This document shows, piece by piece, positions 6,228 to 52,715 of a stretch of 64,000 bases of DNA; position 1 is the stretch's first letter; the number at the start of each line of letters is the position of its first letter. This DNA is from Paucisalibacillus globulus (GTDB taxonomy: Bacteria > Bacillota > Bacilli > Bacillales > Amphibacillaceae). Position numbers and translations under genes: made by a program. Location of the stretch: positions 237,563 through 301,562 of the forward strand of contig NZ_LT855387.1 in the NCBI RefSeq assembly GCF_900184735.1, written 5' to 3'. The notes below the pieces were generated by a model. The model was not told the DNA's origin and ran no database searches. It saw nothing but the letters and a program-made list of their open reading frames with translations.

Positions 6228-6682
6228 GATAAAAACTGCGCGGCTAATATTCTTTTTGGGGAGCACCATACCCGCTACGGAAATACACTCCGCACTCGCT
6301 GAGCGGCTGGTGAGCCTCCTCGTGCTATCGCACTGCGGGGTCTCACCTATGCCTATCCTCCCGCAGGACAAGGAACGCTACGAAAGCAATACATCGCACG
6401 CAGAAAAAGTGATTTTCTTTTTCAAGGAGTCTCCGTGTATTTCCTTCGCTAGTATAGAATGGAAAAAATATTGCATAAAAATAAAGAACAATTTTCTTCG
6501 TGCGATGATTACGCTGACGAAGCATTCCTTATCCTACGGGAATAGCACGTGTCCGAAGACCCCGCAGAGGTGGTTTTTCCTCGAGGAGGCTGAGGCCGGG
6601 CCCGTGGAAAGCGGAGTATTCTGCCGGAGCGGTATATTACCACCACGCCCATTCATGACACTCGTAACCGCACAGTTTCTAT
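6228..6682. repeat. GC-rich palindromic repeat, copy 1 (inverted relative to copies 2-4)
   Basis: This fills most of the 825-bp gap between lepA and yqxA; 5974-6227 shows nothing else recognisable. The ends are GATAAAAACTGCGCGG (left) and CCGCACAGTTTCTATTA (right). Between them are two inverted copies of a ~125 bp unit with the landmarks CTCCTGCGGG, GACCCCGCAG, GAGGAGGCT and CCGCGG. Short extra cassettes interrupt both units at the same site: 6369-6425 in the left and about 6479-6531 in the right. A 34-bp stretch at 6481-6514 is the exact reverse complement of 46755-46788 in copy 3. Open frames across it are by-products. It looks like a MITE-like or structured intergenic repeat without a transposase. 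Confidence 0.85.
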
Positions 6683-6711
6683 TAAATTCAACAAGAATTT
6701 GAACTAAACAA

Positions 6712-6764
6712 CACAAAAATAATTCGAACTGGAATGAATTCTTAGAATCACAGTTCGAATTATT
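6712..6764 (-). terminator. Rho-independent terminator after yqxA
   Basis: A perfect 14-bp stem AATAATTCGAACTG/CAGTTCGAATTATT (6718-6731 and 6751-6764) with a 19-base loop. On the minus strand it runs into TTTTTG. It closes the spoIIP-yqxA transcript before the repeat. Confidence 0.8.
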
Positions 6765-6798
6765 CTTTAATAGATTATCCTCTAGAATTCTCACTTTG

Positions 6799-7134
6799 TT
6801 AGTAGAATAATTGTGAGATTTGGTATAGGATTTGGACAATTAGGTCGTAGAAACCTTGAACAATTACTTCTAGGAAAGATGCTGTTTTTTGGCTTAGGTG
6901 TTCAGTGTTAGAAGCAGAGAGTTCATTAGCGACTGTTTGTTGATTTACTACTTCTGATTCTTGGTTTTTTGGTTTTACCGTCTGTTTTACTTCAGGTGTT
7001 GATTCTACTACCTCGGTATCTGCGACAGCATTGGTAGTTGGTAGAATAGATTTTCCATTATGGTCGATACCGACTAATGTTCCCACTAAAAAGCATACAA
7101 CTAAAAGTAACACGACAGATATAAACTTTGCCAT
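6799..7134 (-). CDS. yqxA: YqxA family protein (small membrane-anchored protein of unknown function)
   Basis: 111 residues: one N-terminal membrane segment (about 4-24, VVLLLVVCFLVGTLVGID), a polar low-complexity stretch and a hydrophobic C-terminus (VIVQGFYDLIVQILYQISQL). The DHNGK motif after the membrane segment and the position directly behind spoIIP match YqxA/DUF3679 of Bacillus. Its function is not known; the context suggests a sporulation-linked membrane role. It starts 15 bp after spoIIP and is therefore co-transcribed with it. Confidence 0.8.
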   Translation of the reverse strand: MAKFISVVLLLVVCFLVGTLVGIDHNGKSILPTTNAVADTEVVESTPEVKQTVKPKNQESEVVNQQTVANELSASNTEHLSQKTASFLEVIVQGFYDLIVQILYQISQLFY

Positions 7135-7149
7135 TTTCCTGAACCTCCT

Positions 7150-8319
7150 TTATTCCGCACTGACCTTTTCAGCATCCCAATAAAATTCACTAAATACTTC
7201 CGCTAAAGCTTCTGCTGATCGATATAATTCCTCGAGATTATTATCCACTCCACCAATTTCAACTGTTAGTGCATTTTCGTGTAAATCTTGGTTAAAGACC
7301 CCATCTGTCCCCGGACCTTTTTTTGGTGGCAAAACTCCGCGACTTAAACCAGGGTATTTCTTTTGCATAATCTTATGTAGTTTACTTGCAATTTCCACAT
7401 TTTTCTCGTAATTTTTATTTTCACCGCCAATGACAAACGCGATTTTTGCATAAGGTTCACCATTAATTACCTTTGTAGTAGCATCGCCTCTAATAGCATC
7501 TCGATGAATATCAAAGACATATCGAATTTCTTTGTTATTAGCAAATACTTCTTGAACATTACCTCGTATAGCATCGTATGACTGCCAATATTCCATATCC
7601 TTCTGTTCTAATAGTTTCATTGTATCCGTTTTATCTAATTGATTCCCAATACCATGTTGATCAAGTGCACTAGCAAAATGCTCACTTACCATGGTTATAT
7701 TAACTTTATTATGCTGTGCCAAATTTGGATTTGTTTCTTCTGGCAAATGTGGTAAAAAGGATTCATAGTTATGTGTATTGTAGATATACACTATATTTTT
7801 ATCACCAGTAGATGGCGGGTTCTCTTGACCTTCATTTTCCTCTTCATTCTCTAGTCCTTCATCAACAACTGCTTCTCTTTCTCTTAAAACCTCTTCTAAT
7901 GGTGGAGAAGATTCAACAGGAAGATTTGTGTAGTTGGTCCCCTCTCCAGCAATAAATATTTCACTATCATAAATTGACAATCCTGGGAGCTCACTACCTA
8001 GTAAACTTCTTGGGTCGTCTGGCTTTATACTAGTAGCTATCTGAAATATTGTTGATGTTATCTTTGGCATTTCAGAATCTGGTGGAAGTCCTTCCAAAAA
8101 TACTCTGTTTTCCATCCCAAATAGATATAGGAAAGTCGAGCTCTCTATCTCACTCGTCCAATTTGTTAATGTGTTGGAAGAAAAACGGAGCGCAGGGGAA
8201 ATAGTAGTAAATAGTCCGATTAATATAAATAAGCAAAGTACACTTATAACGTATAAGGCACTCTTTTTTACAATTAGAAATATTTTTTGTTTATTTTCGT
8301 GATTAGGTAACCCTACCAT
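7150..8319 (-). CDS. spoIIP: Stage II sporulation protein P (SpoIIP), peptidoglycan amidase/endopeptidase
   Basis: Mother-cell membrane enzyme of the SpoIIDMP engulfment machine; it cuts peptide stems and crosslinks of septal peptidoglycan. The 389-residue protein has a short cytoplasmic tail, one membrane segment (about 19-41), a variable acidic region (about 140-170) and the C-terminal catalytic domain. That domain carries the likely zinc ligands H in YNTHNYESF, the DIHRDAIRG segment and E in VEIGGVDNNLEE. The ATG at 8319 follows AGGAAGGTGG. It lies between gpr and yqxA as in B. subtilis, where spoIIP is sigma-E dependent; I could not assign a convincing promoter in the 102-bp gap. Confidence 0.96.
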   Translation of the reverse strand: MVGLPNHENKQKIFLIVKKSALYVISVLCLFILIGLFTTISPALRFSSNTLTNWTSEIESSTFLYLFGMENRVFLEGLPPDSEMPKITSTIFQIATSIKPDDPRSLLGSELPGLSIYDSEIFIAGEGTNYTNLPVESSPPLEEVLREREAVVDEGLENEEENEGQENPPSTGDKNIVYIYNTHNYESFLPHLPEETNPNLAQHNKVNITMVSEHFASALDQHGIGNQLDKTDTMKLLEQKDMEYWQSYDAIRGNVQEVFANNKEIRYVFDIHRDAIRGDATTKVINGEPYAKIAFVIGGENKNYEKNVEIASKLHKIMQKKYPGLSRGVLPPKKGPGTDGVFNQDLHENALTVEIGGVDNNLEELYRSAEALAEVFSEFYWDAEKVSAE

Positions 8320-8428
8320 ATTGTTCCACCTTCCTGTTCGTCTATATTAGAATCTATGACGAATCTTCGGAAGGTAGAACCGACACTCTCATTTATTGCA
8401 AAAATTTAATAGATTTATTCAATTTATC

Positions 8429-9526
8429 TTATCTTGAATAATTAGCAAAGTTATCAACATCTACTGCTTCATGTAGTGCTGCATTAATTCCATTTGCGAT
8501 TACATGTGACATATCAATCATAAATCCATCAACCTCTTTTGGAGTAACCATCATGTTATATCCAGTCGGGGTAAGGACTTCTGCAATAAGTTTTCTTTTT
8601 TCCTCGTCAGATAGAGTCCCAACAATCCCCATAAAGGTTTGCCTTTTATCTGGATCGGGTAAATCTTCTTCTGTAAACTTCTTATTTCCAAAAGACATAC
8701 TTGCTGGTGCTAGTGACTTAGATGGACGATCTTTTTCCCTCCACTCTCTTCCAAAGTGCTTTAAGATATAGTCTATTGTGTCACTTGTTATCGTAACGGC
8801 ATCTACAACCGTTGGAACGCCGATTGCAATAACTGGTACTCCGAGAGTTTCCTTACTTAATTCTTTTCTTTTATTTCCAACACCAGATCCAGGGTGTATT
8901 CCTGAATCAGAAAGTTGAATAGTTTCATTTACGCGCTCAATAGAACGTGAAGCTAATGCATCAATAGCGATAACAAAGTCTGGTTTAAATTTCTCAACAA
9001 TACCAAAAATAATATTACTTGTTTCGATTCCGGTCACTCCCATAACACCAGGAGTTACAGCTCCAACTGGTCGATATCCTTCTGAGACCGATTCATGTTC
9101 AAGTTTAAACAAATGACTTGTAACTAATACTTTTTCTACAGTCATTGGACCTAATGCATCTGGCGTAACATTCCAGTTTCCAAGACCAACTATTAATCCC
9201 GTACCATCTTTTTTGATATTATTTTTTTCTAATAGGTTCTCTAACTCTCTAGCAAGTATTTTGGCGGCATTTTCTTGTAGCTTTGTATCTTGTCTTTTTA
9301 CCCCATCTGCATAAATGGTTACATAAGACCCTGGTTTCTTGTTTAGTAAATTTGCACCTTCTTTATCAATATCAACATAGGACACTTTAATACCGTCTTC
9401 TTCATGATCCTTTAATGTAACACCCGTTATCTTGTCTTCGTCGGGTGTTTCTTTTTCAACGTACATATCCTTTGCTTCGATTGCTAGATCTGTTCGTACC
9501 TGTAGTTTGTTTACATCCATATCCAT
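8429..9526 (-). CDS. gpr: Germination protease GPR
   Basis: Spore-core protease that degrades small acid-soluble proteins when spores germinate. It is made as a zymogen with a short N-terminal propeptide. The conserved core is clear: [11 protein letters not shown] near the processing site, [58 protein letters not shown] and [11 protein letters not shown] take the ATG at 9526 (365 aa, starting [15 protein letters not shown]) because AAAGG lies 12 bases upstream and the leader length then fits B. megaterium GPR. The ATG at 9538 is possible, and the reading frame stays open to 9634. rpsT is divergent upstream. Confidence 0.95.
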
Positions 9527-9702
9527 AATTAATCGCATCCTTTCAGGTGAGTAAAAATCCTTCTGTAATCCCTTTTCACCCCCGTTAGTAATGAACAAAG
9601 CTGTAATTTGTGGATGAAAAGTAAAACAACACACTATCTATAGCATTAGCCTTAACACTTTTACTAAAATCATACAATTTATGGAACGATAAATAATTGT
9701 TA

Positions 9703-9731
9703 TTGAAAACAAGCTCTAACTTTGGTAAAAT
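9703..9731 (+). promoter_or_regulatory. Sigma-A promoter of rpsT
   Basis: TTGAAA (9703-9708), 17-base spacer, TAAAAT (9726-9731), 48 bp before the rpsT start codon. This suits a strongly expressed ribosomal protein gene. Confidence 0.8.
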
Positions 9732-9779
9732 GACTCTTGTTCAATGTAATGAACGTTCTTGTTTTTAGGAGGTGAAATA

Positions 9780-10046
9780 ATGGCTAATATTAAATCCGCA
9801 ATTAAACGTGTTGGTGTAAACAATAAAAAGCGTGCTCAAAACCAATCTGACAAATCAGAAATGCGTTCTCAAATTAAATTAGTTGAAAAATTTGTTGAAG
9901 CAAATGATGTTGAAAGTGCTAAATCAGCTTTAACTGTTACTATCAAAAAAATTGATAAAGCAGTTCAAAAAGGTCTTCTTCATAAAAATGCAGGAAACCG
10001 TCAAAAAGCTCGTCTAACTAAAAAAGTTAACGGACTTAGTGCATAA
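9780..10046 (+). CDS. rpsT: 30S ribosomal protein S20
   Basis: Small basic protein that binds 16S rRNA early in 30S assembly. It is 88 residues long with the family start [11 protein letters not shown] and the end [14 protein letters not shown]. The ATG at 9780 is chosen over one 21 bp upstream because AGGAGGTG (9767-9774) precedes it. It is a single-gene transcript with its own promoter and terminator, convergent with holA and divergent from gpr, as in B. subtilis. Confidence 0.98.
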
Positions 10047-10054
10047 TACATGAA

Positions 10055-10086
10055 AAAAAACGATCCGAAGTTGGATCGTTTTTTCA
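10055..10086 (+). terminator. Bidirectional terminator between rpsT and holA
   Basis: Stem AAAAAACGATCC/GGATCGTTTTTT with loop GAAGTT. T-runs follow on both strands, so it can end both rpsT and holA transcripts. Confidence 0.92.
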
Positions 10087-10095
10087 TTTATACAC

Positions 10096-11109
10096 TTAGT
10101 GTTTTATTAGGTTATATAATAATAATTCAAATGCTAGTTCTTTATCCATTTTTCCTTGTTTCATAATTGCATCTGTCTCAGCTAGGTTATCCATAAATGC
10201 TTTTAACTGTTGAACTGAAAATTTAGCTTCGCGATTCAAGGCGATCTTAATTACGTATGGGTGTGCACCTAATTGTTTTTGCATTTGACCTGAGCTGTAT
10301 CCCTTTTGTTTTAGTAACTTTACCCGAAGAATCGTTCTAAATTGAAAGGCTAATAAACCAATTAATGCGATTGGCTCTTCTTTCATTTTTTCAAGATCTT
10401 TGTAAATAGAGATAGCTTTGGCTAAGTTACCCTCAATAACAGCATCAACTAATCTAATTCCTGAACTACTTATAGTATGTGAGACCATTTCTTCTGCAAC
10501 TTGCTTTGTTACGATGCCACCTTCACCAATGTACATGGCAATCTTTTCTAGTTCTTTCTCCATGATTTTTAAATCATTTGAAAGTTCATTTTCAAATATT
10601 TCATAGGCATTCTCAGCAATTTCAACATTTAATTGCTTCGCTAAATCCATCATCCAATTTTTAATTTCATATTCTTTAACTGGGTTACATTCCGCAACGA
10701 GTCCCTTTTTCTTTAAGGCTTTGCTAATCTTTTTTCGTTCATCAATTTTTTCGTATGGTGCGATTAAAACTAGGATAGAATAATCTACTGGCATTTCTAG
10801 GTATTGTTCCAACACTTCCAGTTGATGTTCAAATGAGAGTTTATCTGGTTTTGCTTTTAGAAATGTTGCGTTTGTTGCAAAGATTAATTTACGGTCACCA
10901 AAAAAAGGATATGTTTCCACATCCGCAACTACTTCTTGTATAGATGTTTCTGTTAAATCATATGTAGAAAGATTCTCTTCATCGGATAACACATTTTTAA
11001 TTAGCAAATCCTTTATTTTTTGGATAAAATAGTTTTCCGTTCCATATAATAAAATGACTTCTGGTATATTTTGCTTCTTTATATGCTTAATTGTCTCCGT
11101 ATAATTCAT
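10096..11109 (-). CDS. holA: DNA polymerase III subunit delta
   Basis: Clamp-loader subunit that opens the sliding clamp. The 337-residue protein has the delta family N-terminus (VILLYGTENYFIQKIKDLL), the middle region DLKIMEKELEKIAMYIG and the C-terminal collar helices ending KELAFELLLYNL. The ATG at 11109 is chosen because GGAG lies 8 bases before it; a GTG 9 bp upstream falls inside the Shine-Dalgarno. Its position between comEC/yqzM and rpsT matches B. subtilis yqeN. Confidence 0.95.
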   Translation of the reverse strand: MNYTETIKHIKKQNIPEVILLYGTENYFIQKIKDLLIKNVLSDEENLSTYDLTETSIQEVVADVETYPFFGDRKLIFATNATFLKAKPDKLSFEHQLEVLEQYLEMPVDYSILVLIAPYEKIDERKKISKALKKKGLVAECNPVKEYEIKNWMMDLAKQLNVEIAENAYEIFENELSNDLKIMEKELEKIAMYIGEGGIVTKQVAEEMVSHTISSSGIRLVDAVIEGNLAKAISIYKDLEKMKEEPIALIGLLAFQFRTILRVKLLKQKGYSSGQMQKQLGAHPYVIKIALNREAKFSVQQLKAFMDNLAETDAIMKQGKMDKELAFELLLYNLIKH

Positions 11110-11178
11110 GCCATTCACTCCAAATTGTTATATATTCATGGTAATTGCTTAACAAGTGAATAGCAAGAAAAACCTGAG

Positions 11179-11207
11179 AGGGAAATTTAGGGATAGTAAA
11201 TTTCCCT
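11179..11207. repeat. Perfect inverted repeat upstream of holA
   Basis: An 11-bp perfect stem AGGGAAATTTA/TAAATTTCCCT with a 7-base loop. Read on the minus strand it is followed after six bases by GGTTTTTC, so it resembles a terminator or attenuator just before holA. The gap 11110-11419 otherwise holds only this, the neighbouring inverted repeat and the yqzM upstream region. Confidence 0.7.
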
Positions 11208-11222
11208 CCCTATCTATATGAA

Positions 11223-11259
11223 CGTTTAACATAAAGCCCTAGGAACGTTATGTTAAACG
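11223..11259. repeat. Second perfect inverted repeat between yqzM and holA
   Basis: A 12-bp perfect stem CGTTTAACATAA/TTATGTTAAACG with a 13-base loop. On the plus strand it is followed by ATGTTTTTCC. It could be a terminator-like structure or a protein-binding palindrome. Confidence 0.65.
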
Positions 11260-11419
11260 ATGTTTTTCCTTTATTTATAGCATGACCCTTCTCCCCAAAA
11301 GTATAGTTGTTAGTTCTTTCTAATTTTGGTTAATAAAATTAAATATGAACTTTTTGTATCATTGGTGGATTTTTTTATGTAATTAATTTATACTAAAGGT
11401 TGATATAGGAGGGTTAGCT

Positions 11420-11554
11420 ATGAATGAATTTGAAAAGGATCCACAATCCAAAAATCATGATGTTGTTGATTCCATTAAGGGGTTCGCATTTTCTTTAGTT
11501 TTCTTTCTACTAATTTTTGCTATTGGCGTAACCATTAGTGTAGTTGGCTCTTAA
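11420..11554 (+). CDS. yqzM: YqzM family small membrane protein
   Basis: A 44-residue protein read directly from the sequence: MNEFEKDPQS at the start, then KNHDVVDSIKGF, then one membrane segment (about 23-43) ending ISVVGS. Length, start and position between comEC and holA, on the opposite strand, match B. subtilis YqzM, whose function is unknown. The ATG is preceded by AGGAGGG (11408-11414), and a terminator follows. Confidence 0.88.
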   Translation: MNEFEKDPQSKNHDVVDSIKGFAFSLVFFLLIFAIGVTISVVGS

Positions 11555-11572
11555 AGGTACATAATTGAAGTG

Positions 11573-11614
11573 AACAAAAGAGACAGGAAATTACCTAGTC
11601 TCTTTTGTTTTTTT
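11573..11614 (+). terminator. Terminator between yqzM and comEC
   Basis: Stem AACAAAAGAGAC/GTCTCTTTTGTT followed by TTTTT on the plus strand. The convergent comEC ends 20 bp further on, so it may serve both directions. Confidence 0.88.
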
Positions 11615-11633
11615 ACATTACTCAATATATAAA

Positions 11634-13895
11634 CTATGGCTTAAATGGATAAAAGGTTCCGTTCTTTTCGGTATATCGATAAAAAATTGCACCATCTTTA
11701 TCAGTCCTCATAATAGTCACGTCTTCCTGATTGAATGTTTCAATCACGTTACGTGATGGATGTCCGTAACGATTCTCGCGGCCGACTGAAATTAACGCAA
11801 AAGTAGGATTAATTCGAGAAACAAATTCAGGATTTGATGACGTCTCACTTCCATGATGAGCAACTTTAAGGACGTCTACTGCTAAGTTTTGAAACCTATT
11901 AAGAATTTCTTGTTCATTATTAACATGAATGTCACCAGTAAATAACCAGGAAAAGTTTCCAATGTCTGCATGAAGTACTAATGAATTTTCATTACTGTTA
12001 TTTTTATCTACCCAAGGAGAAAGAATTGTAAACCTATTCCCTTTAATATCAACGTTTTGTCCCGCTTCTACTTGCAATAAATTAGGTCTACTCTCCAAGT
12101 GAAAATCATACTCAAAAAATTTACTGGTTATAACCTTCTCTACGTTAAAATCTTCTAATATGTATGGAATACTCCCAACATGGTCAATATCTTCATGACT
12201 AATAAACACCACGTCTATCTTATTAATTCCTTGATATTGTAAAAATGGTTTTATTATTCTTTTATAAATTGAATCGGAAGGCTCAAAATCATCAAAGGAG
12301 AAATTTGCACCAGAATCAATTAATACTACTCCTTTACGATATGGAAACTCAATTACAATAGCGTCACCTTGACCAATATCAAGCATCGTTACAGTTCCAT
12401 AAGGAGATAAATAAGGACGAATCAATAATGAAAATAGTAATGCTGTTAATATTACACCATACCCAAAAGCCTTTCGATTGTTTTGACGATGAATGCTATT
12501 CATCATTAAAACTAGTAAAGAATAATAAACTACAATTAGAATGGATGGAAATTTCCCTGTAATCCAAGGATAAAATGCGAATTGATCGATGTATTCAAGT
12601 GGTACTAAGAAGAAAACATCGTGAATAGTTGAGAATAGCTTGTCTACTAACTCAGGAACTAAAGGAATTGGAAAAACAATTATTAGTATGAACATTAACG
12701 GGATTACAAAGAAGGAGAAATACGGTACGACAAGGACATTAAGCACTATAGAAAGAGGATTAAATTGAAAGAAGTATATAATTTGTAATGGAATAATCAT
12801 TAGTTGAGAGATAAAACTTAGTTTCAACATTTGGAAAAATAAGGAGTTATCTTCTGAAATCCACTTTCTGGATAGAATGATTCCAAACGTTACAATAAAT
12901 GATAACTGGAAACCAACATGGTAAATAATATACTTATCCATTGCAATAAGGAGTAAGAACGTAACACTAATTACATCTGTTACCGAAAGTTTCAACCTGA
13001 TTTTACGAATAAGAATTACTAATATAACCATTGAACAAGCTCTCAAAACAGATGGTTCACCACCAGCAAGAATTGCATAGATTGGTAAAAATATAATGAT
13101 TACATAATGATATTTTTCCCTAGTTAATAAACCGAACTTGACTGTAATCATAAATAATAAGCCAACAACCAATCCAATGTGTAAACCTGAAATGGCCAAT
13201 AAATGTGATAATCCCCACCTTTGAAATAGTTCAGTGGTGTCTTTACTTATTAGACTGTCATCCCCAAGTACTAGTGCATTTATCCATGCACTTGTTTTCT
13301 CTGAGTAAGTTATTAACACATACTCTTTAATGCTGTCTCTAAGTTTATAAATCCAGTTCCAGTTTGTTTTTCCTTGACAGCTAATATCATTAAAGGACTC
13401 AACTTCCACTTCGAATTGAATTCCACTTGCAGCAAGGTATTTTTGATAATTAAATTGCCCTGGATTCGTACTTTCTTCCGGTATTCTTACCTCTCCAACA
13501 AGTTGACAATTGGCACCTAGTTGTATAGATAAGTAATTCGGATTTGTTGTTTCAGGATTATAATAGAGTACTTTTAAGATATTTTTTGTATTGCTTTCTT
13601 GAAAATCAAATTGAAGGACGGTTTCAGATGTACTGATTGGACTTACTATTTCACCAATTAAGGTCTTCTTCTCTTGGGTATTTATAGTAGTATTGAGTTC
13701 AATCTGAGGAATATAAATGAAGAAAAAAAGAAAGGTGGCTAGGGAAATGAAAAAAGGAATTTTCCCTAACCGGTTTGAACTATATAAATACACGAACCAA
13801 ACTAAAAGTGCAATAAAAAAGATACTCGAATCAAATACTCTTGTCAAGGCACTACATAAACATGCCATTGCCGGTACATACCAATAGCCTTTCAT
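11634..13895 (-). CDS. comEC: DNA internalization channel ComEC/Rec2
   Basis: Polytopic membrane protein that takes single-stranded DNA across the membrane during natural transformation. The 753 residues include N-terminal membrane segments and a soluble OB-like region (about 60-180), a competence domain of membrane helices (about 205-490, including HLLAISGLHIGLVVGLL), and a C-terminal metallo-beta-lactamase-like domain. The latter has MLDIGQGDAIVIEFP, FISHEDIDHVGS (HxDxDH), LFTGDI and VAHHGSETSS, so the putative nuclease ligands are intact. It starts 9 bp after comEB, with AGGTAG before the ATG. It is the last gene of comEABC. Confidence 0.96.
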   Translation of the reverse strand: MKGYWYVPAMACLCSALTRVFDSSIFFIALLVWFVYLYSSNRLGKIPFFISLATFLFFFIYIPQIELNTTINTQEKKTLIGEIVSPISTSETVLQFDFQESNTKNILKVLYYNPETTNPNYLSIQLGANCQLVGEVRIPEESTNPGQFNYQKYLAASGIQFEVEVESFNDISCQGKTNWNWIYKLRDSIKEYVLITYSEKTSAWINALVLGDDSLISKDTTELFQRWGLSHLLAISGLHIGLVVGLLFMITVKFGLLTREKYHYVIIIFLPIYAILAGGEPSVLRACSMVILVILIRKIRLKLSVTDVISVTFLLLIAMDKYIIYHVGFQLSFIVTFGIILSRKWISEDNSLFFQMLKLSFISQLMIIPLQIIYFFQFNPLSIVLNVLVVPYFSFFVIPLMFILIIVFPIPLVPELVDKLFSTIHDVFFLVPLEYIDQFAFYPWITGKFPSILIVVYYSLLVLMMNSIHRQNNRKAFGYGVILTALLFSLLIRPYLSPYGTVTMLDIGQGDAIVIEFPYRKGVVLIDSGANFSFDDFEPSDSIYKRIIKPFLQYQGINKIDVVFISHEDIDHVGSIPYILEDFNVEKVITSKFFEYDFHLESRPNLLQVEAGQNVDIKGNRFTILSPWVDKNNSNENSLVLHADIGNFSWLFTGDIHVNNEQEILNRFQNLAVDVLKVAHHGSETSSNPEFVSRINPTFALISVGRENRYGHPSRNVIETFNQEDVTIMRTDKDGAIFYRYTEKNGTFYPFKP

Positions 13896-13904
13896 CTTTT
13901 GCGT

Positions 13905-28861: not shown

Positions 28862-29343
28862 GATAGAAACTGCGCGGTAACTAGTTCAAATACCCAATAG
28901 TTCATGGTTATAGCAGTACGACACCGCTCCGGCAGAATACTATGCTTTCCGCGGGCCCGGACTCAGCCTCCTCGAGGAAAGTTCGCCTCTCTAGGGGTCT
29001 TCGGACACGTGCATTTCCCGCAGGAGTCTTCGTATTCTGCCTGCGCTAGTTTAGTTTTCTAATTAAAGATAGTAATTAGCTTGCATTGCCAGCAATTGAA
29101 CACCAATATTTCTATTTACTCTATCTCAGCGAAGGAAATACACGGAGACTCCTGCTGGAGGATAGGCATCGGTGAGACCCCGCAGTGCGTAAGCGGGAGG
29201 CTCACCAGCCGCCGCGGCAAGGTAGACACTGTGAGGTACTTTCGAACAGATGTCGCCCCTGTGCTGACAGTAAAAGCGGAGTGTATTTCCGTAGCGGGTA
29301 TGATGCGCTACCATAATGCTTAGTTACCGCACAGTTTCTAATT
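28862..29343. repeat. GC-rich palindromic repeat, copy 2
   Basis: Occupies most of the 28754-29434 gap between greA and yrrS. The ends are GATAGAAACTGCGCGGTAAC and TTACCGCACAGTTTCTAATT. The left unit (about 28920-29053) has no insertion. The right unit (about 29128-29300) carries a 55-bp cassette at 29218-29272, between CCGCGG and AAAGCGG. The same cassette lies in the other arm of copy 3 (46571-46626). The open frame across 29081-29323 is a by-product. Confidence 0.85.
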
Positions 29344-36607: not shown

Positions 36608-36845
36608 AAAACAAAAAAATCCCCTCTCTGCTTTAATAGCAGGGACGAGATTAAACGCGGTACCACCCTAATTATGAACAAGATTTTGTTCATCACTTTT
36701 GGCATGTTAACGGTTGCGAACCGACGGGGATTAGCCGTACTCAGGTTTAGCTTTCCATGGTTCTAACTTAGAATTTCTTTCAGCCTTGGGAAATCCCTCT
36801 CTACAAATCGAGTGCCATGTACTTATAACCATCATCGAGATAATT
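36608..36845 (-). promoter_or_regulatory. T-box riboswitch leader of alaS
   Basis: The minus strand holds the T-box AGGGTGGTACCGCG (36656-36669) followed by the terminator hairpin (GTCCCTGC..GCAGAGAGGGGA, then seven Ts). Stem I has the AGAGAG bulge and the GGCTGAAAGA distal loop. The likely specifier is GCT (Ala), followed by A, at 36749-36751. Uncharged tRNA-Ala would allow read-through into alaS. Confidence 0.95.
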
Positions 36846-45474: not shown

Positions 45475-45492
45475 AGAGAAATAATAATTTAA

Positions 45493-45520
45493 GGCATCCA
45501 CTATAGGATGTCTTTTTTTG
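45493..45520 (+). terminator. Terminator after rarA
   Basis: Stem GGCATCC/GGATGTC with loop ACTATA, then TTTTTTT. The remaining gap 45521-45738 shows no gene. Confidence 0.85.
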
Positions 45521-45738
45521 GGTTAGAGTAGTTTAGAAATTACTTAGATCATAAAAAATATCATAGCGTAACGTATAAAAATTATCTCTCTCGTCAAAAC
45601 TATAGAAAACGAAATACTGACCTGAAAGTCACTTCTTAAACTGTCTATCTAATGAACTGACTTTTTGCCAACACAATTTACTAGTTAAAATCTATTGTTT
45701 TGAACAGGTAGTTACCAGAAAAAGGAGATGAAACATAC

Positions 45739-46410
45739 ATGACAAAAGTTAGACAAGATGCGTGGTCACATGAAGATGACCTGTTACTTGCAGAAACTGT
45801 GCTGCGTCATATTAGAGAAGGAAGTACTCAATTAAATGCTTTTGAAGAAGTTGGCGATAAATTAAATCGTACTTCTGCTGCATGTGGATTTAGGTGGAAT
45901 GCTGAAATCCGAAAAAAATACATTAGTGCAATTGACCTTGCCAAAAGGCAACGTAAAGAAAAGAAACGTGCAATAGAGAAGGCAAAAAAAAATACGCGGC
46001 CATCTATTATTACCTTTCAGCCAAACTATGAAACCGTAATGGAAGAGAATACAGATACTACTACTGAGGTAGCACAAATGCAGCCTACAACTATAACATT
46101 AGAGACTGTTATACAATTTTTAAATCAGCTTAAAAAAGACTACTATGCTTCCAATCAATCAAAAGTTTCATTGGATCAAGCACAAAAAGAGAATATTATG
46201 TTGAAAGAACAGATTGCTAAACTTGAAAAGAAGCTTTCTGAAACAGAACATGAGCTAGTTACCATCCAGGAAGATTACAAGGTATTTGTTCAGATTATGG
46301 ATCGTGCTAGAAAGATGACAGTTCTTGAAGATCAAGGTTCATTTAAAGCACCTGCATTCCGCATGGATAAGAATGGTAATCTAGAGCAAATCGCACAAGG
46401 TTCCAATTAA
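45739..46410 (+). CDS. RsfA family transcription factor (Myb/SANT-like, prespore regulator type)
   Basis: A 223-residue DNA-binding protein. The N-terminal SANT/Myb-like domain (about 1-58, WSHEDDLLLAETVLRHIREG, FEEVGDKLNRTSAACGFRWN) is that of RsfA/YlbO. A basic patch (RQRKEKKRAIEKAKKN) and a coiled coil (about 135-180) follow. RsfA of B. subtilis is made under sigma-F and fine-tunes the prespore regulon; whether this is that orthologue or the YlbO-type paralogue cannot be decided here. AAAGGAGATG precedes the ATG. Confidence 0.88.
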   Translation: MTKVRQDAWSHEDDLLLAETVLRHIREGSTQLNAFEEVGDKLNRTSAACGFRWNAEIRKKYISAIDLAKRQRKEKKRAIEKAKKNTRPSIITFQPNYETVMEENTDTTTEVAQMQPTTITLETVIQFLNQLKKDYYASNQSKVSLDQAQKENIMLKEQIAKLEKKLSETEHELVTIQEDYKVFVQIMDRARKMTVLEDQGSFKAPAFRMDKNGNLEQIAQGSN

Positions 46411-46413
46411 TAT

Positions 46414-46449
46414 AAAGATGTCTAGGAATTTTCCTAAGACATCTTTTTA
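46414..46449 (+). terminator. Terminator after the rsfA-like gene
   Basis: Stem AAAGATGTCT/AGACATCTTT with inner AGGAA/TTCCT, followed by TT. It is symmetric, so it may work in both directions. Confidence 0.88.
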
Positions 46450-46493
46450 ATTGTTTGATTTCAATGTGTTAATTCCTAATTTCTTCTCAATTT

Positions 46494-47062
46494 GATAGAA
46501 ACTTTGCGGTAATGACTGTCAATTAATAAGTGTAGTATTAATATACCGCTCCGGCAGAATACTCCGCTTTTACTGTCAGCACAGGGGCGACATCTGCTCG
46601 AAAAGACCGTCGCAGTGTCTACCTTGCCGCGGACCCGGCCTCAGCCTCCTCGAGGAAAGTTCGCCTCTCTAGGGGTCTTCGGACACGTGCTATTCCCGCA
46701 GGACAATGGTTTTCGGTGGGGCGAGTAATCGCAGTCCCAAGGAAGTCTACGGCTGCGTAATCATCGCACGAAGAAAATTGTTCTTTATTTTCGAGGAGTC
46801 TACGTATTCTGCCTGCGCTAGTTTGGGTTTTCTAACTTTAAGTTAGCAAGTAATTATTGTGTTGGTTTTAATTACTTATATTTTTTTCACTCAATACTAG
46901 CGAAGGAAATACACGGAGACTCCTGCGGGAGGATAGGCATCGGTGAGACCCCGCAGTGCGTAAGCGCGAGGAGGCTCACCAGCCGCCCGCGGAAAGCGGA
47001 GTGTATTTCCGAAGCGGGTATGTTGCTCCCAAATAAAAAATATTCACCGCATAGTTTCTATC
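46494..47062. repeat. GC-rich palindromic repeat, copy 3 (longest, two cassettes)
   Basis: Lies in the 46411-47452 gap. The ends are GATAGAAACTTTGCGG and CCGCATAGTTTCTATC. The left unit carries two insertions relative to copy 4: a 56-bp cassette at 46571-46626 next to CCGCGG, and a 91-bp cassette at 46704-46794 between CGCAGGA and GGAGTCT. The right unit (about 46898-47020) is uninterrupted. These insertions explain its 569-bp length compared with 432 bp for copy 4. Confidence 0.85.
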
Positions 47063-47089
47063 AAATACCAAGTAACTGCATTCATATTA

Positions 47090-47138
47090 AACAAAAAATA
47101 GCCAGAATCTATTAAGGATAGACTCTGGCTTTTATTTA
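47090..47138 (-). terminator. Terminator downstream of 6S RNA
   Basis: Stem AGCCAGAGTCTATCC/AGATTCTGGCT, followed on the minus strand by ATTTTTTG. The plus strand also has TTTTATTTATT, so it can work both ways. Confidence 0.85.
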
Positions 47139-47154
47139 TTCTATGTATTTTATC

Positions 47155-47328
47155 AATCCCAATTATGCCGTCTATAGTAAGTTTTGATCCCCGCTCCTAG
47201 CAGGTGGGTGCTTTGTTTCGAATATTATACGTCCTTTGAAAAGGCATGTATGCCATACGAAAACAATCAAGCTCCCTCTTTTAAACTGTTCGGTCAAAAC
47301 ATATTTTATAGACTAACATATCAGGATT
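47155..47328 (-). ncRNA. ssrS: 6S RNA (SsrS/BsrA type)
   Basis: About 174 nt. The minus strand starts AATCCTGATATGTTAG and ends GACGGCATAATTGGGATT, close to the ends of B. subtilis 6S-1 RNA, and the ends pair (AATCC/GGGATT). The middle can form a long interrupted hairpin with an open central bulge that mimics a melted promoter and traps sigma-A RNA polymerase. The site upstream of the rarA side and downstream of aspS matches bsrA, to my recollection. The exact ends are inferred from base pairing. Confidence 0.85.
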
Positions 47329-47452
47329 GACGTATACAGATACATTTCGTTTGTAAAATTATCTTAACACATGGACTCAAGTCCATTCAACATCACTTTA
47401 TATGAAGATTTAGTTACAAATGTTACAAATTACAAACATATCTTCATTTTAG

Positions 47453-49216
47453 TCATAATTTTGGGTTTAACTGAATAGACAATTCCGATAACTGTGCTTC
47501 ACTAACATCACTCGGAGCATTTGTTAAAAGATCCGAAGCGGATGCTGTTTTCGGGAAGAGTATTGTATCACGTAAATTGCTTCTTCCTGTAAGCAACATT
47601 ACAATTCGATCTAATCCGAGTGCAATTCCACCATGTGGTGGAGCACCATATTCTAATGCTTCTAATAAGAAACCAAACTGCGCTTCTGCTTCTTCTTCTG
47701 TAAAGCCTAGTACTTTAAACATTTCATTCTGCACTTCACGCTTATAGATACGAATTGAGCCTCCTCCTAATTCGTAGCCATTTAAAACAAGGTCATAGGC
47801 ATTCGCTCGTACGCTTTTAGGATCTGTAGATAGCTTTTCAAAATCTTCTTCGAAAGGCATCGTAAATGGATGATGTGCTGCAAAATAGCGGCCAAGTTCT
47901 TCATCATACTCTAATAATGGCCAATCTGTTACCCATAAGAAGTTAAATTTGCTTTCATCGATTAAGCCATTTTCTTTACCTAATTTTAATCGTAATGCAC
48001 CAAGACTATCATATACAACAGATGTTTTGTCAGCTACAAATAAGAGTAAATCTCCATTTTCCGCATTTGCACGTTCAAAAAGACCTTGTTTTTCCTCATC
48101 AGAAATGAATTTTGCAATTGGTCCTTTTAATTCTTCCTCTTCCACTTTAAGCCACGCTAAACCTTTAGCTCCATAAACCTTCACAAACTCTGTTAATTTA
48201 TCAATATCTTTACGAGAGTAATTGGTTGCCTCTCCTTTAACATTCAAGAGTGCAACCTTTCCTCCACTTTCAATTGCACCTTGGAACACTTTAAAGTTCG
48301 ATTTGTCTAGCACATCGGAAACATGTATTAACTCTAAATCGAATCGGGTATCAGGTTTATCAGAGCCATAACGTTCCATTGCTTCTTGATATGGCATGCG
48401 TTGTAATGGTAGCTCAATTTCAACGTTGTTTACTTCTTTCATAACCTTCTGCATCATACGTTCCGTCATGGACATGATTTCGTCACTAGTCATAAAGGAA
48501 GTTTCGATGTCAATTTGAGTAAATTCTGGCTGACGGTCAGCGCGCAAGTCCTCGTCACGGAAGCAACGTGCAATTTGATAATACTTTTCAAACCCACTCA
48601 TCATAATTAACTGTTTAAATAATTGTGGGGACTGTGGTAAAGCATAAAATTCCCCTGAATGAACTCTACTTGGTACTAAATAGTCACGTGCCCCTTCTGG
48701 TGTGCTTTTTGTTAAAATTGGAGTTTCCATTTCTAAGAAACCATCGTCATTTAAAAAGTTCCTTACTACTTGTGAGATCTGATGTCGTTTCTTAAATGTT
48801 TCTTGTAGTGGAGCTCTTCGCAAATCTATATAACGATATTTTAATCGTAAATCTTCCGATACATCTGTTTCATCTTGTATTAGGAATGGAGGATTTTTGG
48901 ATTTGTTTAATACCACCACTTCATTTGCAATAACTTCCAGGGTACCAGTTTCCATTAGTGGATTAATGGTTTTATCATCACGTAAGACAACTTGTCCCTT
49001 TACTTCTATAACATATTCACTACGAACGTTTTCTGCTATAGCTAATGCTTCTTCATACTTTGGATTGAAAACAACCTGGACAATTCCCGATTTATCACGA
49101 AGATCAATGAAAATTAACCCTCCCAAATCGCGTCGTTTTTGAACCCAACCTTTTAATAGAATTTCTTTTTCAACGTCTGATTCCCGAATTGTGCCGGCAA
49201 GTACTCTTTCGCTCAT
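47453..49216 (-). CDS. aspS: Aspartate--tRNA ligase (bacterial type)
   Basis: Charges tRNA-Asp. The 587-residue protein has the N-terminal OB-fold anticodon domain ([22 protein letters not shown], shown by [13 protein letters not shown]), class II motifs ([18 protein letters not shown], shown by [13 protein letters not shown]; and [15 protein letters not shown]) and the bacterial GAD insertion. Its ATG directly follows the hisS stop, and its AGGAGG lies in the last hisS codons, so the two are coupled. Confidence 0.98.
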
Positions 49217-50497
49217 CTATTTTCCTCCTAATATCTTTTCCTTCATTGTGTTTATTAATTGATTTAGAGGAACTTCAACCTGTTCACCAGTTGCCATTTC
49301 CTTAACATTAATTACTTCTTTTTGTATCTCATCTTCTCCAAGAACCAAGACATACTTTGTCTTATAGCGATCTGCTGCTTTAAACTGGGCTTTTACTTTT
49401 CTCCCCTGATAATCTTGGTCTACTTGAATACCATTCTGGCGAAGTTCATGAACTAATTTTACTGCTACCTCTTTCGATCCTTCTCCTAAAGTAACAACAT
49501 AACAATCAAGCTCAGCTTCTAATGGAAGTTCGATATCCTCTGCTTCCAGCGCCATTAGTAATCGTTCAATTCCCATACCAAAACCAATTCCAGGGGTAGC
49601 AGGACCATTAAGTTCCTCAACAAGTCCATTATATCTACCACCACCACAAAGAGTGGTTATTGCACCAAATCCCTTTGCCTCACTCATAATCTCGAATGCA
49701 GTATGGTTATAATAATCAAGGCCACGAACTAGATTCGAATCTACTTCATATTCAATTCCCATTAAGTCAAGATAGTGTTTAACCTGTTCAAAATACTCTT
49801 TTGATTCTTCATTTAAATAATCCAATATTGAAGGTGCTGTCTTCATAGAAGGATGATCACGGTCCACTTTACAATCAAGAACCCTCATTGGATTTTGTTC
49901 TAATCGTGATTGACAATCTTTACACAATTCTTCTTTATATGGTGTAAAGTGTGTAATTAAAGCTTCTCTGTGATTTGTTCTACTTTCAACATCACCTAGA
50001 GTATTGATGACTAATTTTAATGATGTTAGTCCTAATGTTTTATATACGGTCATTGCTAAATCAATTACTTCCGCATCAACAGCTGGGTCAGCACTTCCGA
50101 GCACCTCAACCCCAAATTGATTTAATTGACGCATCCTACCTTGCTGAGGTCGTTCATATCGAAACATTTGAGCAAAATAGTATAATTTTACGGGTTGATT
50201 AGGCTCCCCATATAATTTGTTTTGAACAAATGCTCTCGTCACAGAAGCAGTTCCTTCAGGACGGAGAGTTAAACTTCTTCCACCTCGGTCTTCAAACGTA
50301 TACATTTCCTTTTGAACAATGTCCGTAGAGTCTCCAACTCCTCGTGCAAAAACCTCTGTATGTTCAAATAATGGTGTACGGATTTCCTCGTAATGATAAT
50401 TATTACTAATTCCTTTTATTACATTCTCCACATACTGCCATTTTTTAGCATCCTTTGGTAGAATGTCGGCAGTTCCTCTTGGCGCCTTAATTTCCAT
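49217..50497 (-). CDS. hisS: Histidine--tRNA ligase
   Basis: Charges tRNA-His. The 426-residue protein has the class II core: [35 protein letters not shown] (shown by [15 protein letters not shown]), the histidine motif [15 protein letters not shown] and [14 protein letters not shown], plus a C-terminal anticodon domain. The ATG at 50497 is chosen over a frame open to 50533 because GGAGG lies 8 bases upstream. It heads the hisS-aspS operon under T-box control. Confidence 0.98.
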
Positions 50498-50524
50498 AAT
50501 AAAATCCTCCCTCAAACTAAGTAA

Positions 50525-50795
50525 AAAACACAAAAAACTCCCGTCCCTTATAATAAAGGGACGAGAGTTACCCGCGTTGCCACCCTAGTTGATGCTATTA
50601 GTGCATCCACCTTTCACAGTTAACGCCTGCAAAACGTCTATATTTACTAGTTAATTCGTTCAATATAGATCCTAAGGAATGTCTTTCACTAAATTGTTAT
50701 GCAAAATGCTCACAGCCAAGGCATTTTGTCTCTGGACATACATGATTTAGTTACTCTTTCCCTCACTGGATTAAGTATAGTACGTTCCTATTACT
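50525..50795 (-). promoter_or_regulatory. T-box riboswitch leader of hisS-aspS
   Basis: On the minus strand the T-box AGGGTGGCAACGCGG (50572-50586) is followed by the terminator ACTCTCGTCCCTT/AAGGGACGGGAGT and TTTTTTG. Stem I has AGAGACAA and the distal loop TTGGCTGTGAGC. The expected specifier position (50679-50683) reads GACAT: GAC codes Asp and CAT codes His. The leader fills the gap upstream of hisS. Confidence 0.93.
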
Positions 50796-50807
50796 TGAAT
50801 GACTATT

Positions 50808-50836
50808 ATCATAATGTTTCAGATGTAGAATGTCAA
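50808..50836 (-). promoter_or_regulatory. Sigma-A promoter of hisS-aspS
   Basis: On the minus strand TTGACA (50831-50836), 17 bases, TATGAT (50808-50813). The -35 box overlaps the stop codon of the small yrzK-like gene. Confidence 0.88.
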
Positions 50837-51006
50837 GTACGATTTATTTTTTTCTTCAATGCTTTTACCTCACCTAATGAAATACCAAGTTCTTGTGCGA
50901 TTTCCATATGTCCTGATGAGTCTTGCATTTCTACAAAACGATGTAAATTAACACCAAAAACATCCCGGTTATTCTGTGAATTCCAATGCTTTTCGTTCAT
51001 TCGCAA
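50833..51006 (-). CDS. yrzK: Small helix-turn-helix-like protein (YrzK-like)
   Basis: A 57-residue protein from a TTG at 51006 (Shine-Dalgarno AGGAGG 8 bases upstream); an ATG lies two codons in. It reads MRMNEKHWNSQNNRDVFGVN, later SSGHMEIAQELGISLGEV, then KALKKKINRT. The segment EIAQELGISLGEVKALKKK looks like a sigma-70 region 4-type helix-turn-helix. A small gene of this type lies between hisS and the yrvJ amidase in B. subtilis. No function is known. Divergent from the amidase gene. Confidence 0.8.
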   Translation of the reverse strand: MRMNEKHWNSQNNRDVFGVNLHRFVEMQDSSGHMEIAQELGISLGEVKALKKKINRT

Positions 51007-51105
51007 GATTTCCGCCTCCTCTTTCTCATAAGACTAGCTTTGCCTATTTGTTTGTTTTTTATTAGAATATAAAAGAAGAGTTGTTTAAAATTAGGAGGAA
51101 GTTTT

Positions 51106-52200
51106 TTGCGAAAAAGAGATTTAGTAGTCGTATTACTTTGTCTAGCACTTCTAATCTGGAATATTCCTGTAGTTGCTAGTACAAAGGAAGTCATTATTAA
51201 TGAAGATAATTTGAATCTAAGAAGTGGCCCTGGTACTACATATGGTAATTTAGGACAAGTACATAAGGATGAGGTTTATTCTGTTATTGATGAACAAGCA
51301 GGATGGGTCGAAATCCAGTTAGAGGGTTATACAGCGTGGGTATCCACCGATTATGTTTCAATGAAAGGTGAATCATTGGATAAAGATACATCAGAAGAAA
51401 TTGAAGATGAGAATACAACTGACTTGAACGAATCGACAGTAAGTGACGAACAAAAAACAATAGAAATACTCTATAACAAGACACAAATCCGAAGTGGCCC
51501 TTCGACCGATAAAGAAATCACATCTTTTGCTAAAAAAGGTGATAAATATCAGGTAGTTGGGGAAACAGATAGTTGGTTAAAAGTAAAGTCTGAAGATTCT
51601 GAGGGCTATATCTTCAAAGAACTAGTAGAAGTAACTGCAGATAATCTGACAGATGGAATGAACGGGAAAACAGTAGTAATTGATCCTGGTCACGGTGGTA
51701 ATGATTCAGGGGCATTAAGCGTAAATGAAGTATATGAAAGAGATTTGACATATAAAACTGCTGAAATACTAGCACAAGAACTTACGATACTTGGAGCAGA
51801 AGTTATCTTGACTCGAGATGAAGAAACATTTGTCTCTTTAACAAGTAGAGCCACCTTGGCGAATACAGTGAACGCTGACGCTTTCATAAGTTTACACTAT
51901 AATAGTGTACCTGACTTACCAAGCGTTACAGGTATTGGGACATACTATTATCAGGAACAATATGAACCGTTAGCAACTTACATTCAGCAAGAAATTATTA
52001 AAGAGTCAGACGATCGGGACCGTGGTGCAGATTTTGGTGACTTCCAAGTGATTCGCCAAAATTTAACGCCTTCTGTTTTAATTGAATTAGGATTTATATC
52101 TAATCCTGAGGTTGAACAACTATTACTAACTAATGTTTATCAAGAAAAATTAGTTGCGGGTATAGTTAATGGATTACAGCGGTATTTTGCTGTTCAGTAA
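51106..52200 (+). CDS. yrvJ: N-acetylmuramoyl-L-alanine amidase with SH3b domains (YrvJ-like)
   Basis: Secreted cell-wall hydrolase. The 364-residue protein has a signal peptide (about 1-24, cleavage near VVAST), two bacterial SH3 domains (about 28-87, NLNLRSGPGTTYGNLG; about 117-175, TQIRSGPSTDKEIT) and an Amidase_3 domain (about 187-363). The zinc ligands are in VIDPGHGGNDSG, E in YERDLTYK and H in ISLHYNS; the catalytic Glu is in VLIELGFISN. It begins with TTG at 51106, with AGGAGG 7 bases upstream. Confidence 0.94.
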   Translation: MRKRDLVVVLLCLALLIWNIPVVASTKEVIINEDNLNLRSGPGTTYGNLGQVHKDEVYSVIDEQAGWVEIQLEGYTAWVSTDYVSMKGESLDKDTSEEIEDENTTDLNESTVSDEQKTIEILYNKTQIRSGPSTDKEITSFAKKGDKYQVVGETDSWLKVKSEDSEGYIFKELVEVTADNLTDGMNGKTVVIDPGHGGNDSGALSVNEVYERDLTYKTAEILAQELTILGAEVILTRDEETFVSLTSRATLANTVNADAFISLHYNSVPDLPSVTGIGTYYYQEQYEPLATYIQQEIIKESDDRDRGADFGDFQVIRQNLTPSVLIELGFISNPEVEQLLLTNVYQEKLVAGIVNGLQRYFAVQ

Positions 52201-52283
52201 TATGACTTAATCTAATTAGACAGGAAAAGGCTACATCCTAAAATAATTTATTGCTTCTGGATAGTTTAATATAACAAATAGTA

Positions 52284-52715
52284 GATAGAAACTGTGCGGT
52301 AACTAGTATAATTACACAGAATTAGTTATTGGGTATAGCTATACGACACCGCTCCGGCAGAATACTCCGCTTTCCGCGGGCCCGGCCTCAGCCTCCTCGA
52401 GGAAAGTTCGCCTCTGCGGGGTCTTCGGACACGTGCTATTCCCGCAGGAGTCTCCGTATTCTGCCTGCGCTAGTTAAGTTTTCAAGTTATTGTTAGTTTA
52501 TGAATCATATCATGGATTATAATGGTACTTTCATTTTTGTTAACTCTATCTCAGCGAAGGAAATACACGGAGACTCCTGCGGGAGGATAGGCATAGGTGA
52601 GACCCCGCAGTGCGTTAGCACGAGGAGGCTCACCAGCCGCCCGCGGAAAGCGGAGTGTATTTCCGTAGCGGGTATGGTGCTCCCCCAAAAAAATATTAGC
52701 CGCACAGTTTCTATC
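52284..52715. repeat. GC-rich palindromic repeat, copy 4 (no cassettes; reference form)
   Basis: Lies in the 52201-52750 gap between the convergent amidase and dtd genes. The ends are GATAGAAACTGTGCGG and CCGCACAGTTTCTATC. Two uninterrupted ~125-bp units in inverted orientation (about 52345-52472 and 52553-52672) flank an AT-rich spacer of about 80 bp. Each unit has internal palindromes (CTCCTGCGGG with CCCCGCAG; GGAAATACAC with GTGTATTTCC; GGTGAG with CTCACC). It is the cleanest copy for defining the family. Confidence 0.88.

What the first reader, a model, noticed from the sequence alone, without database searches (positions are those of the whole stretch)
6228..52715. A family of large palindromic intergenic repeats with conserved inverted ends
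Four complete copies (6228-6682, 28862-29343, 46494-47062, 52284-52715) share ends reading GATAGAAACTG.GCGG and the inverse. All have two inverted copies of one ~125-bp GC-rich unit around an AT-rich spacer. They are much richer in GC than the genes around them, code for nothing convincing, and lie only between transcription units. One copy is in the opposite orientation. The unit has several internal palindromes and could fold into a branched RNA or cruciform. Similar GC-rich repeats occur in other Bacillaceae as far as I recall, but I know of no assigned function or mobilising enzyme.
Basis: partly seen in the sequence, partly recalled or inferred. Interest (0 to 1): 0.7.

Follow-up and report, generated by a model that had tools for sequence, protein, structure and literature searches.

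The report
Hairpin-carrying IS1595-type miniature transposons
About a hundred GC-rich repeats between genes of this bacterium are likely miniature transposons: where their decayed outer ends can still be read, they match the ends of a complete IS1595-family transposon in a related species, and they carry a folded hairpin module that also occurs in many other genomes of its order.

Summary
In detail: the four copies belong to a family of roughly 100 elements in this 3.9-Mb genome (222 end matches against 25 for the reversed-pattern control). These outer ends match (27 and 24 of 28 bases) a complete 1,880-bp IS1595-family transposon in a species of the same genus, flanked by an exact 8-bp duplication. 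Elements of the family also show 8-bp duplications above chance (own genome 5 of 57 against 0.98; same-genus species 4 of 18 against 0.00). I conclude that they are old IS1595-type MITEs. No IS1595 transposase was found in the own genome, so they are probably orphaned. The cargo is two inverted ~125-nt GC-rich units that fold locally; such units covary across genomes. An exact unit motif occurs in 129 of 299 genomes of the order. The same unit also sits between IS1182-type ends elsewhere. What the unit does is unproven; I favour a cis-acting role in the elements' own spread.

The parts
6228..6682 (-). Copy 1, core between inner ends (opposite orientation); outer ends decayed, placed by eye at about 6190 and 6705
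   Evidence: outer ends by eye only
28862..29343 (+). Copy 2, core between inner ends; beta unit carries the ~60-bp stem module at about 29220-29276; outer ends not mapped
   Evidence: (L025)
46494..47062 (+). Copy 3, core between inner ends; outer ends by eye about 46453 and 47080; alpha unit carries the stem module. The orthologous site of same-genus genome G007 holds a core-less 68-bp outer element
52284..52715 (+). Copy 4, core between perfect 16-bp inner inverted ends GATAGAAACTGTGCGG
52229..52743 (+). Copy 4, whole element between outer ends placed by eye (GGCTAC...TAGCC), between two convergent genes
52345..52475 (-). Copy 4 alpha unit (sense strand GACTCCTGCGGGA... is the - strand); stem GGCAGAATAC/GTATTCTGCC
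52550..52675 (+). Copy 4 beta unit (sense on + strand); stem GGAAATACAC/GTGTATTTCC; fold z-score -5.6

Best explanation
The four repeats belong to a family of about 100 elements whose outer ends, where still readable, match those of a complete IS1595-family transposon in the same genus, so they are likely MITEs (non-autonomous elements) that were once moved in trans by such a transposase. Anatomy (shown): outer end GGCTGTTTTC with a ~28-bp end stretch like the transposon's, an AT-rich linker, an inner inverted repeat TTGATAGAAACTGYGCGGTAA, a GC-rich folded unit (alpha), an AT-rich spacer, a second inverted unit (beta), then the mirror image. Insertion gave 8-bp AT-rich duplications (shown statistically and in single cases). 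The transposase family was not found in this genome, so the copies are probably orphaned and decaying (inferred). The GC-rich unit is a structured module found across the order and also carried between IS1182-type ends. I infer that it acts in cis for the elements' own propagation or for tolerated insertion, for example as a hairpin of a single strand or by insulating transcription, rather than for the host at each site.
For: Outer end GGCTGTTTTC at <=2 mismatches in 45 of 136 ends against 0 of 136 shuffled. Flank consensus A (read by eye) matches 27 of 28 bases of one end, and B 24 of 28 of the other, of a complete element in same-genus genome G004: L251 602-2481, 1,880 bp, exact duplication ATAATTAA/ATAATTAA, transposase from ATG 335 aa, Pfam PF12762 E=2.7e-18, NCBIfam IS1595 transposase E=3.4e-63. 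A Priestia flexa plasmid holds a 1,303-bp element with such ends, duplication TTAACATA/TTAGCATA and an interrupted transposase whose pieces match IS1595 models (E=3.5e-28 and 2.4e-11); a Niallia plasmid has an IS1595 transposase 81 bp inside the same end. Duplications of >=7/8: own genome 5 of 57 against 0.98; fetched same-genus elements 4 of 18 against 0.00, two exact, all four in G001. IS1595/IS1016 elements are reported to make 8-bp, A/T-rich repeats (PMC12561309 and PMC10045372, passages). Presence/absence: at the copy-4 site 8 of 10 other genus members keep both neighbours; 7 of these show no unit or inner end between them. Copy-3 site: core-less in G007, empty in G001. End counts at <=2 mismatches run from 0 to 101 in the 10 other genus members, 164 here. 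Unit divergence stays near 6% while linker divergence goes from 10 to 50%, yet close pairs diverge in units (3.3%) and inner ends (9%) too.
Against: 91 of 136 outer ends are not recognisable at <=2 mismatches and 52 of 57 elements show no duplication of >=7/8. L030, whose two outer ends are perfect, has only 4 of 8, and its entry among the five uses another, doubtful end. At <=3 mismatches 5-bp repeats are also in excess (6 against 2.35). None of the 3 G007 elements shows a duplication. IS1595 transposase is absent from the own genome and from 15 of 17 others searched. Inner ends are better kept than outer ends, odd if only the outer ends are used. The core-less relative at the copy-3 site allows the core to be a separate insertion. 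The autonomous L251 carries no unit motif. The role of the units is inference.
Confidence: 0.83

Rival explanations
1. The core (inner ends TTGATAGAAACTGYGCGG plus two units) is a separate mobile element that inserts into the palindromic centre of a short, common IS1595-type mini-element; the outer ends are then its target, not its own.
For: The G007 orthologue of copy 3 is a core-less 68-bp outer element with duplication TTTAATAT/TTTTATAT; inner ends are better conserved than outer; different linker classes carry the same core, and the A/B pair occurs in both orientations to the core (A-B 13 times, B-A 6 of 68).
Against: Flank A at <=2 mismatches adjoins a core at 16 of 16 places in the own genome. 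In G001, 8-bp duplications lie outside the outer ends with the core inside, so outer ends and core moved together at least there. Only L269 of the loci held shows a core-less element over its full length; the whole genome was not searched for one. No transposase with the inner ends was found; none was specifically sought.
Confidence: 0.3
2. The units are a structured RNA or a 3'-end/terminator element with a function for the host at each site.
For: Stems covary across genomes: own-partner scores 12.96 and 22.64 against maxima of 10.92 and 14.72 in 200 swaps, 25 of 32 units parsed. G-U exceeds A-C on the GACTCC strand (27 against 12; genomes 13 against 4, 8 ties). Fold z-scores -5.6 (beta) and -6.9 (L168). 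In two Priestia loci the element begins just after a stop codon and in G328 one replaces a terminator.
Against: End counts swing from 0 to over 100 within one genus. Close copies diverge in units too. On fixed Watson-Crick columns in the own genome G-U against A-C is only 43 to 25. The alpha unit of copy 4 folds no better than shuffles (z -0.98). Tandem, convergent and divergent positions all occur. Transcription could not be looked at.
Confidence: 0.2
3. REP/REPIN-like repeats moved by a RAYT (Y1) transposase through single-strand hairpins.
For: Two inverted folded units around a spacer resemble a REPIN in outline (recalled); GC-rich, intergenic, high copy.
Against: Units are ~125 nt, not 20-40 bp (REP size from the abstract of PMC3733652); 8-bp duplications and IS1595-type ends point to a DDE enzyme. 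A Y1 transposase was not searched for.
Confidence: 0.05

Closest known systems
IS1595 family (ISXO2-like DDE transposase, PF12762); MITEs of IS families in general
   Same: Terminal GGCTGTTTTC, 28-bp end match, 8-bp AT-rich duplication
   Different: No transposase inside; cargo of two inverted structured units and an inner inverted repeat; the autonomous L251 has no unit motif
IS1182 family (IS1272/TnSha1 type)
   Same: The same GC-rich unit is carried between GGCTGGGACAAAA-type ends like those of two incomplete PF13751 transposons in this genome; at one G328 site such an element stands in place of a terminator hairpin, as reported for TnSha1/IS1272 (PMC4923244, passages)
   Different: Window copies have GGCTGTTTTC ends and 8-bp duplications instead
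Bhal-1 family of B. halodurans (PMC2267715, passages)
   Same: Undescribed intergenic stem-loop family, 74 bp, 36 copies, in a Bacillaceae
   Different: Its sequences are in a supplement I could not read; identity untested
REPINs, ERIC, bcr1 (recalled, apart from listings and passages)
   Same: Intergenic palindromic multi-copy elements
   Different: Not compared by sequence

Membership tests
IS1595-type MITE | Ends match an IS1595-family transposon | tested here: met
   27/28 and 24/28 of flank consensuses against L251; transposase named by Pfam and NCBIfam; single outer ends readable at 45 of 136
IS1595-type MITE | 8-bp target duplication | tested here: met
   5/57 against 0.98 and 4/18 against 0.00; met for the family statistically, not for most single copies
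IS1595-type MITE | No transposase gene inside | tested here: met
   Three ORFs in or across copies match no Pfam family at E<=0.1; L031 carries an IS110 transposase inside a copy, read as a later insertion
IS1595-type MITE | Moved in trans by an IS1595 transposase | not testable with these tools
   Needs a transposition assay
IS1182-type MITE | GGCTGGGACAAAA-type ends | tested here: not met
   Window family ends are GGCTGTTTTC; such ends are seen instead on unit-bearing elements of Priestia, G328 and G010
ISL3-type MITE (first guess from GG ends and 8 bp, recalled) | ISL3 transposase in the genome | tested here: not met
   PF01610: 0 matches; by itself weak, since IS1595 is absent from this genome too
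Known Rfam RNA | Match above gathering score | tested here: not met
REPIN/RAYT | 20-40 bp REP with GTAG or CGTC tag; RAYT gene | not tested
   Unit length argues against; Y1 transposase not searched
Structured RNA | Covarying helices on one transcribed strand | tested here: inconclusive
   Covariation met; strand asymmetry weak; transcription not testable

The most novel reading that the evidence does not exclude
The ~125-nt GC-rich hairpin is a hyperparasite: a structured nucleic-acid module, with no gene and no transposase of its own, that spreads through Bacillales by riding in the palindromic centres of unrelated transposon ends (IS1595 and IS1182 types), and that pays its way by making the host element's insertion succeed or be tolerated.
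Probability: 0.28. Interest if true: 0.78.

Novelty: new variant of a known kind. Interest (0 to 1): 0.56.

Why it matters
An anonymous repeat family gets a probable mobilising enzyme, likely true ends and a duplication length, so its mobility becomes directly testable. The same covarying module between two kinds of transposon ends, with an exact unit motif in 129 of 299 sampled genomes of the order, raises a sharper question: why does one folded sequence recur in unrelated miniature transposons? At one gene pair, two species of the genus even carry it in the two different types. It also adds a case in which a mobile element stands where relatives have a terminator hairpin.

Tried and rejected
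ISL3 as the enzyme: PF01610 absent from the own genome, and the ends then led to IS1595. IS1182 as the enzyme of the window family: the copies found here have other ends. IS110 inside L031 as the parent: it lies inside one of the 68 parsed copies and was read as a later insertion (its own ends were not mapped). Long-range hairpin of the whole element: the minimum-energy fold of the whole consensus does pair the arms with each other, but the closing stems of each arm fit each other perfectly only within the arm, so I prefer local folds. Flanks as a target site: flank A was not found without a core, though G007 at copy 3 keeps this open. Host selection on every copy: the contrast units 4-6%, linkers 27-33% looked like it, but close pairs diverge in units too. 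G-U/A-C counts from alifold structures were set aside as biased by the structure search. A unit from another genome (L168) in phages: no match in 50,697 records; the window element itself was not searched there. Plasmid comparisons for empty sites gave nothing. My first reading of the copy-4 site read the wrong side for four loci; redid all. My note of A/B orientations used locus, not core, orientation; one search gives the right counts. Papers: in the listings of searches I saw no report of this family; most subscription papers are not held.
Full report
What is there. The four copies are at the stated places. A blast of copy 4 against its own genome (3,924,109 bases, 23 contigs) found 174 candidate places, scored 40 and listed 117 matching pieces. 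The pattern TAGAAACTGYGCGGTAA with up to 3 mismatches occurs 116 times forward and 106 reverse, against 11 and 14 for the same pattern read backwards. That is about 197 real ends, or roughly 100 elements. I fetched 53 stretches besides 30 search loci and parsed 68 different elements with both inner ends: 67 are 280-882 bp between inner ends, and one of 2,030 bp has an IS110 transposase gene inside.

Anatomy. The consensus core is 427 nt: inner end, AT linker, alpha unit, AT spacer, beta unit, AT linker, inner end. The alpha and beta units are inverted relatives, but each has its own closing stem: GGCAGAATAC/GTATTCTGCC in alpha and GGAAATACAC/GTGTATTTCC in beta. They therefore fit better within the arm than with each other, although the lowest-energy fold of the whole consensus does pair arm with arm. 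As RNA the beta unit of copy 4 folds at z = -5.6, the alpha unit at only z = -0.98.

The likely true ends lie outside. Sequence beyond the inner ends is not random: recurring flank classes lead to an outer GGCTGTTTTC. Searched 25-90 bp outside, 45 of 136 ends carry it at <=2 mismatches, against 0 of 136 shuffled sequences. Flank A was searched on its own: all 16 hits at <=2 mismatches adjoin a core. In core orientation A-B occurs 13 times and B-A 6 times among 68 elements.

The enzyme. A 31-base outer end searched against 72,556 plasmids gave 13 records. I opened five. Two have IS1595-type genes: a Niallia plasmid with an annotated IS1595 transposase (PF12762 E=1.3e-14) starting 81 bp inside the end, and a Priestia flexa plasmid with a 1,303-bp element, duplication TTAACATA/TTAGCATA, and an interrupted transposase whose two pieces match IS1595-type models. 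The other three list no transposase within reach; of these I read only one further. PF12762 was then sought in 18 genomes: absent from the own genome, intact in G004 and with a stop in G008, both of the same genus. The G004 element (L251 602-2481) is complete, with a 335-aa transposase (PF12762 E=2.7e-18, NCBIfam IS1595 E=3.4e-63) and an exact ATAATTAA duplication; its two ends match flank consensuses A and B at 27 and 24 of 28 bases.

Duplications. Among the 57 of 68 own elements with candidate outer ends at <=4 mismatches on both sides, 5 have >=7/8 identical bases against 0.98 expected from swapped flanks; lengths 4-7 are at or modestly above expectation and 9-10 show none. At <=3 mismatches 8 bp stands at 3 against 0.28, but 5 bp at 6 against 2.35 too. 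Of the five, two (L033 8/8, L055 7/8) look sound by eye; L030 does not, since its two perfect outer ends give 4 of 8. Two further own elements seen look good by eye (L122 TATACTTA/TATACTTA, L138 ATTACAAA/ATTACAAT). Of 20 loci fetched from G001 and G007, 18 could be parsed; 4, all from G001, have >=7/8, two exact, against 0.00 expected. Papers give 8-bp, A/T-rich repeats for IS1595/IS1016 elements (PMC12561309 and PMC10045372, passages).

Presence and absence. At the copy-4 site (amidase-like gene, then a convergent gene that I take for D-tyrosyl-tRNA deacylase, both named by eye) 8 of 10 other genus members keep both neighbours. Seven of them show no exact unit or inner-end motif between the genes. 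The eighth, G010, has a unit-bearing element there, but with GAGGCTGGGACAA at its end, i.e. of the IS1182 type. At the copy-3 site, G007 has a 68-bp element with outer ends but no core, duplication TTTAATAT/TTTTATAT, and G001 has neither. Two of 11 loci could not be parsed; the other six have no inner-end or unit motif in the first 700 bp after the gene, and one of them (L272) has a unit motif at 735. So the core may have been lost or gained there; I leave both open.

The module beyond this genome. GACTCCTGCGGGA N(8-30) AGACCCCGCAG occurs exactly in 129 of 299 genomes sampled from the window's order, 59 of 116 genera, up to 71 per genome (the own), with 0 reversed-control matches. An exact beta core gave 15 stretches, in Paucisalibacillus, Ornithinibacillus, Lentibacillus and Heyndrickxia. 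Plasmids: 7 records for copy 4 and 14 for a unit from another genome; phages none for that unit. In Priestia megaterium and in G328 the unit lies in elements with ends GGCTGGGACAAAA or GGCTGAGACAAAC, about 345 bp long in Priestia. Two PF13751 transposons of the window's own genome have such ends; as read they are incomplete, one cut by a contig end and one with a masked stretch. A related intact gene in G001 is named IS1182 by NCBIfam (E=7.1e-147). In G328 one such element occupies the place of an intrinsic terminator hairpin seen in relatives 92% and 90% identical at that locus, with both flanks kept and no duplication seen (one site). IS1272 and TnSha1, of the IS1182 family, are reported to insert in terminator hairpins and delete part of them (PMC4923244, passages).

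Covariation. For one unit per genome (25 of 32 given could be parsed; one is from the own genome), the inner and outer stems fit their own partner better than in any of 200 swaps: 12.96 against at most 10.92, and 22.64 against at most 14.72. On the GACTCC strand G-U pairs exceed A-C (27 to 12; 13 genomes to 4, 8 ties; 95 to 21 over 84 of 99 units, many closely related), but within the own genome on fixed Watson-Crick columns only 43 to 25. This favours a single-stranded form of that strand but does not settle RNA.

What the units do. Across 57 aligned copies, units differ from the majority by 4-6%, AT linkers by 27-33%, inner ends by 6-8%. Unit divergence stays near 0.06 while linker divergence rises from 0.1 to 0.5, then 0.13 beyond; yet in the 15 closest pairs units (3.3%) and inner ends (9%) diverge alongside linkers, and private changes are 0.5%, 0.9% and 1.4% for units, linkers and inner ends. 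I read this as constraint on the lineages that spread, with decay after insertion, which fits a cis-acting role in propagation. Gene conversion among units is not excluded, and the twofold lower rate of private changes in units leaves room for some selection on copies.

Verdict. IS1595-type MITE family with a two-hairpin cargo: well supported. Mobilisation by the transposase: inferred. Role of the cargo: open.

Noticed in passing
L239 (genome G001), 360-2030: An intact IS1182-family transposon (NCBIfam E=7.1e-147) sits just after a flagellin gene (Flagellin_C E=5.3e-33); a 21-bp hairpin AGGATGTCCAATGGACATCCT is present on both sides, so here a whole terminator-like hairpin seems duplicated rather than partly deleted.
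   Followed up: partly
L183 (genome G010), between the amidase-like and deacylase-like genes: At the site of window copy 4, another species carries a unit-bearing element with IS1182-type ends: two element types at one gene pair.
   Followed up: partly
window 29220-29276 and about 46567-46630; also L145, L182, L183: A ~60-bp module (AAGGTAGACACTG...) is inserted in a stem of beta or alpha units; similar modules are seen in another family of the order and in two genus members.
   Followed up: partly
L223 (genome G062), right after a stop codon: A ~220-bp element with GGCTCTTTTC/GAAAACAGCC ends and a 7/8 duplication (TTGTATTA/TTATATTA) carries a quite different body without the GC-rich unit.
   Followed up: no
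L031 (G000:C4:183400-186700): An IS110-family transposase gene lies inside one copy of the repeat.
   Followed up: partly
L177 (Peribacillus plasmid), about 1471-1710: A unit lies between GACTGTAGGCAAA and TTTGTCTACAGTC, next to an annotated IS1182 transposase: a possible third end type for the unit.
   Followed up: no
window 50554-50775 (-), 36638-36844 (-), 47152-47330 (-): Two T-box leaders and the 6S RNA; copy 3 lies about 90 bp from the 6S RNA gene.
   Followed up: no
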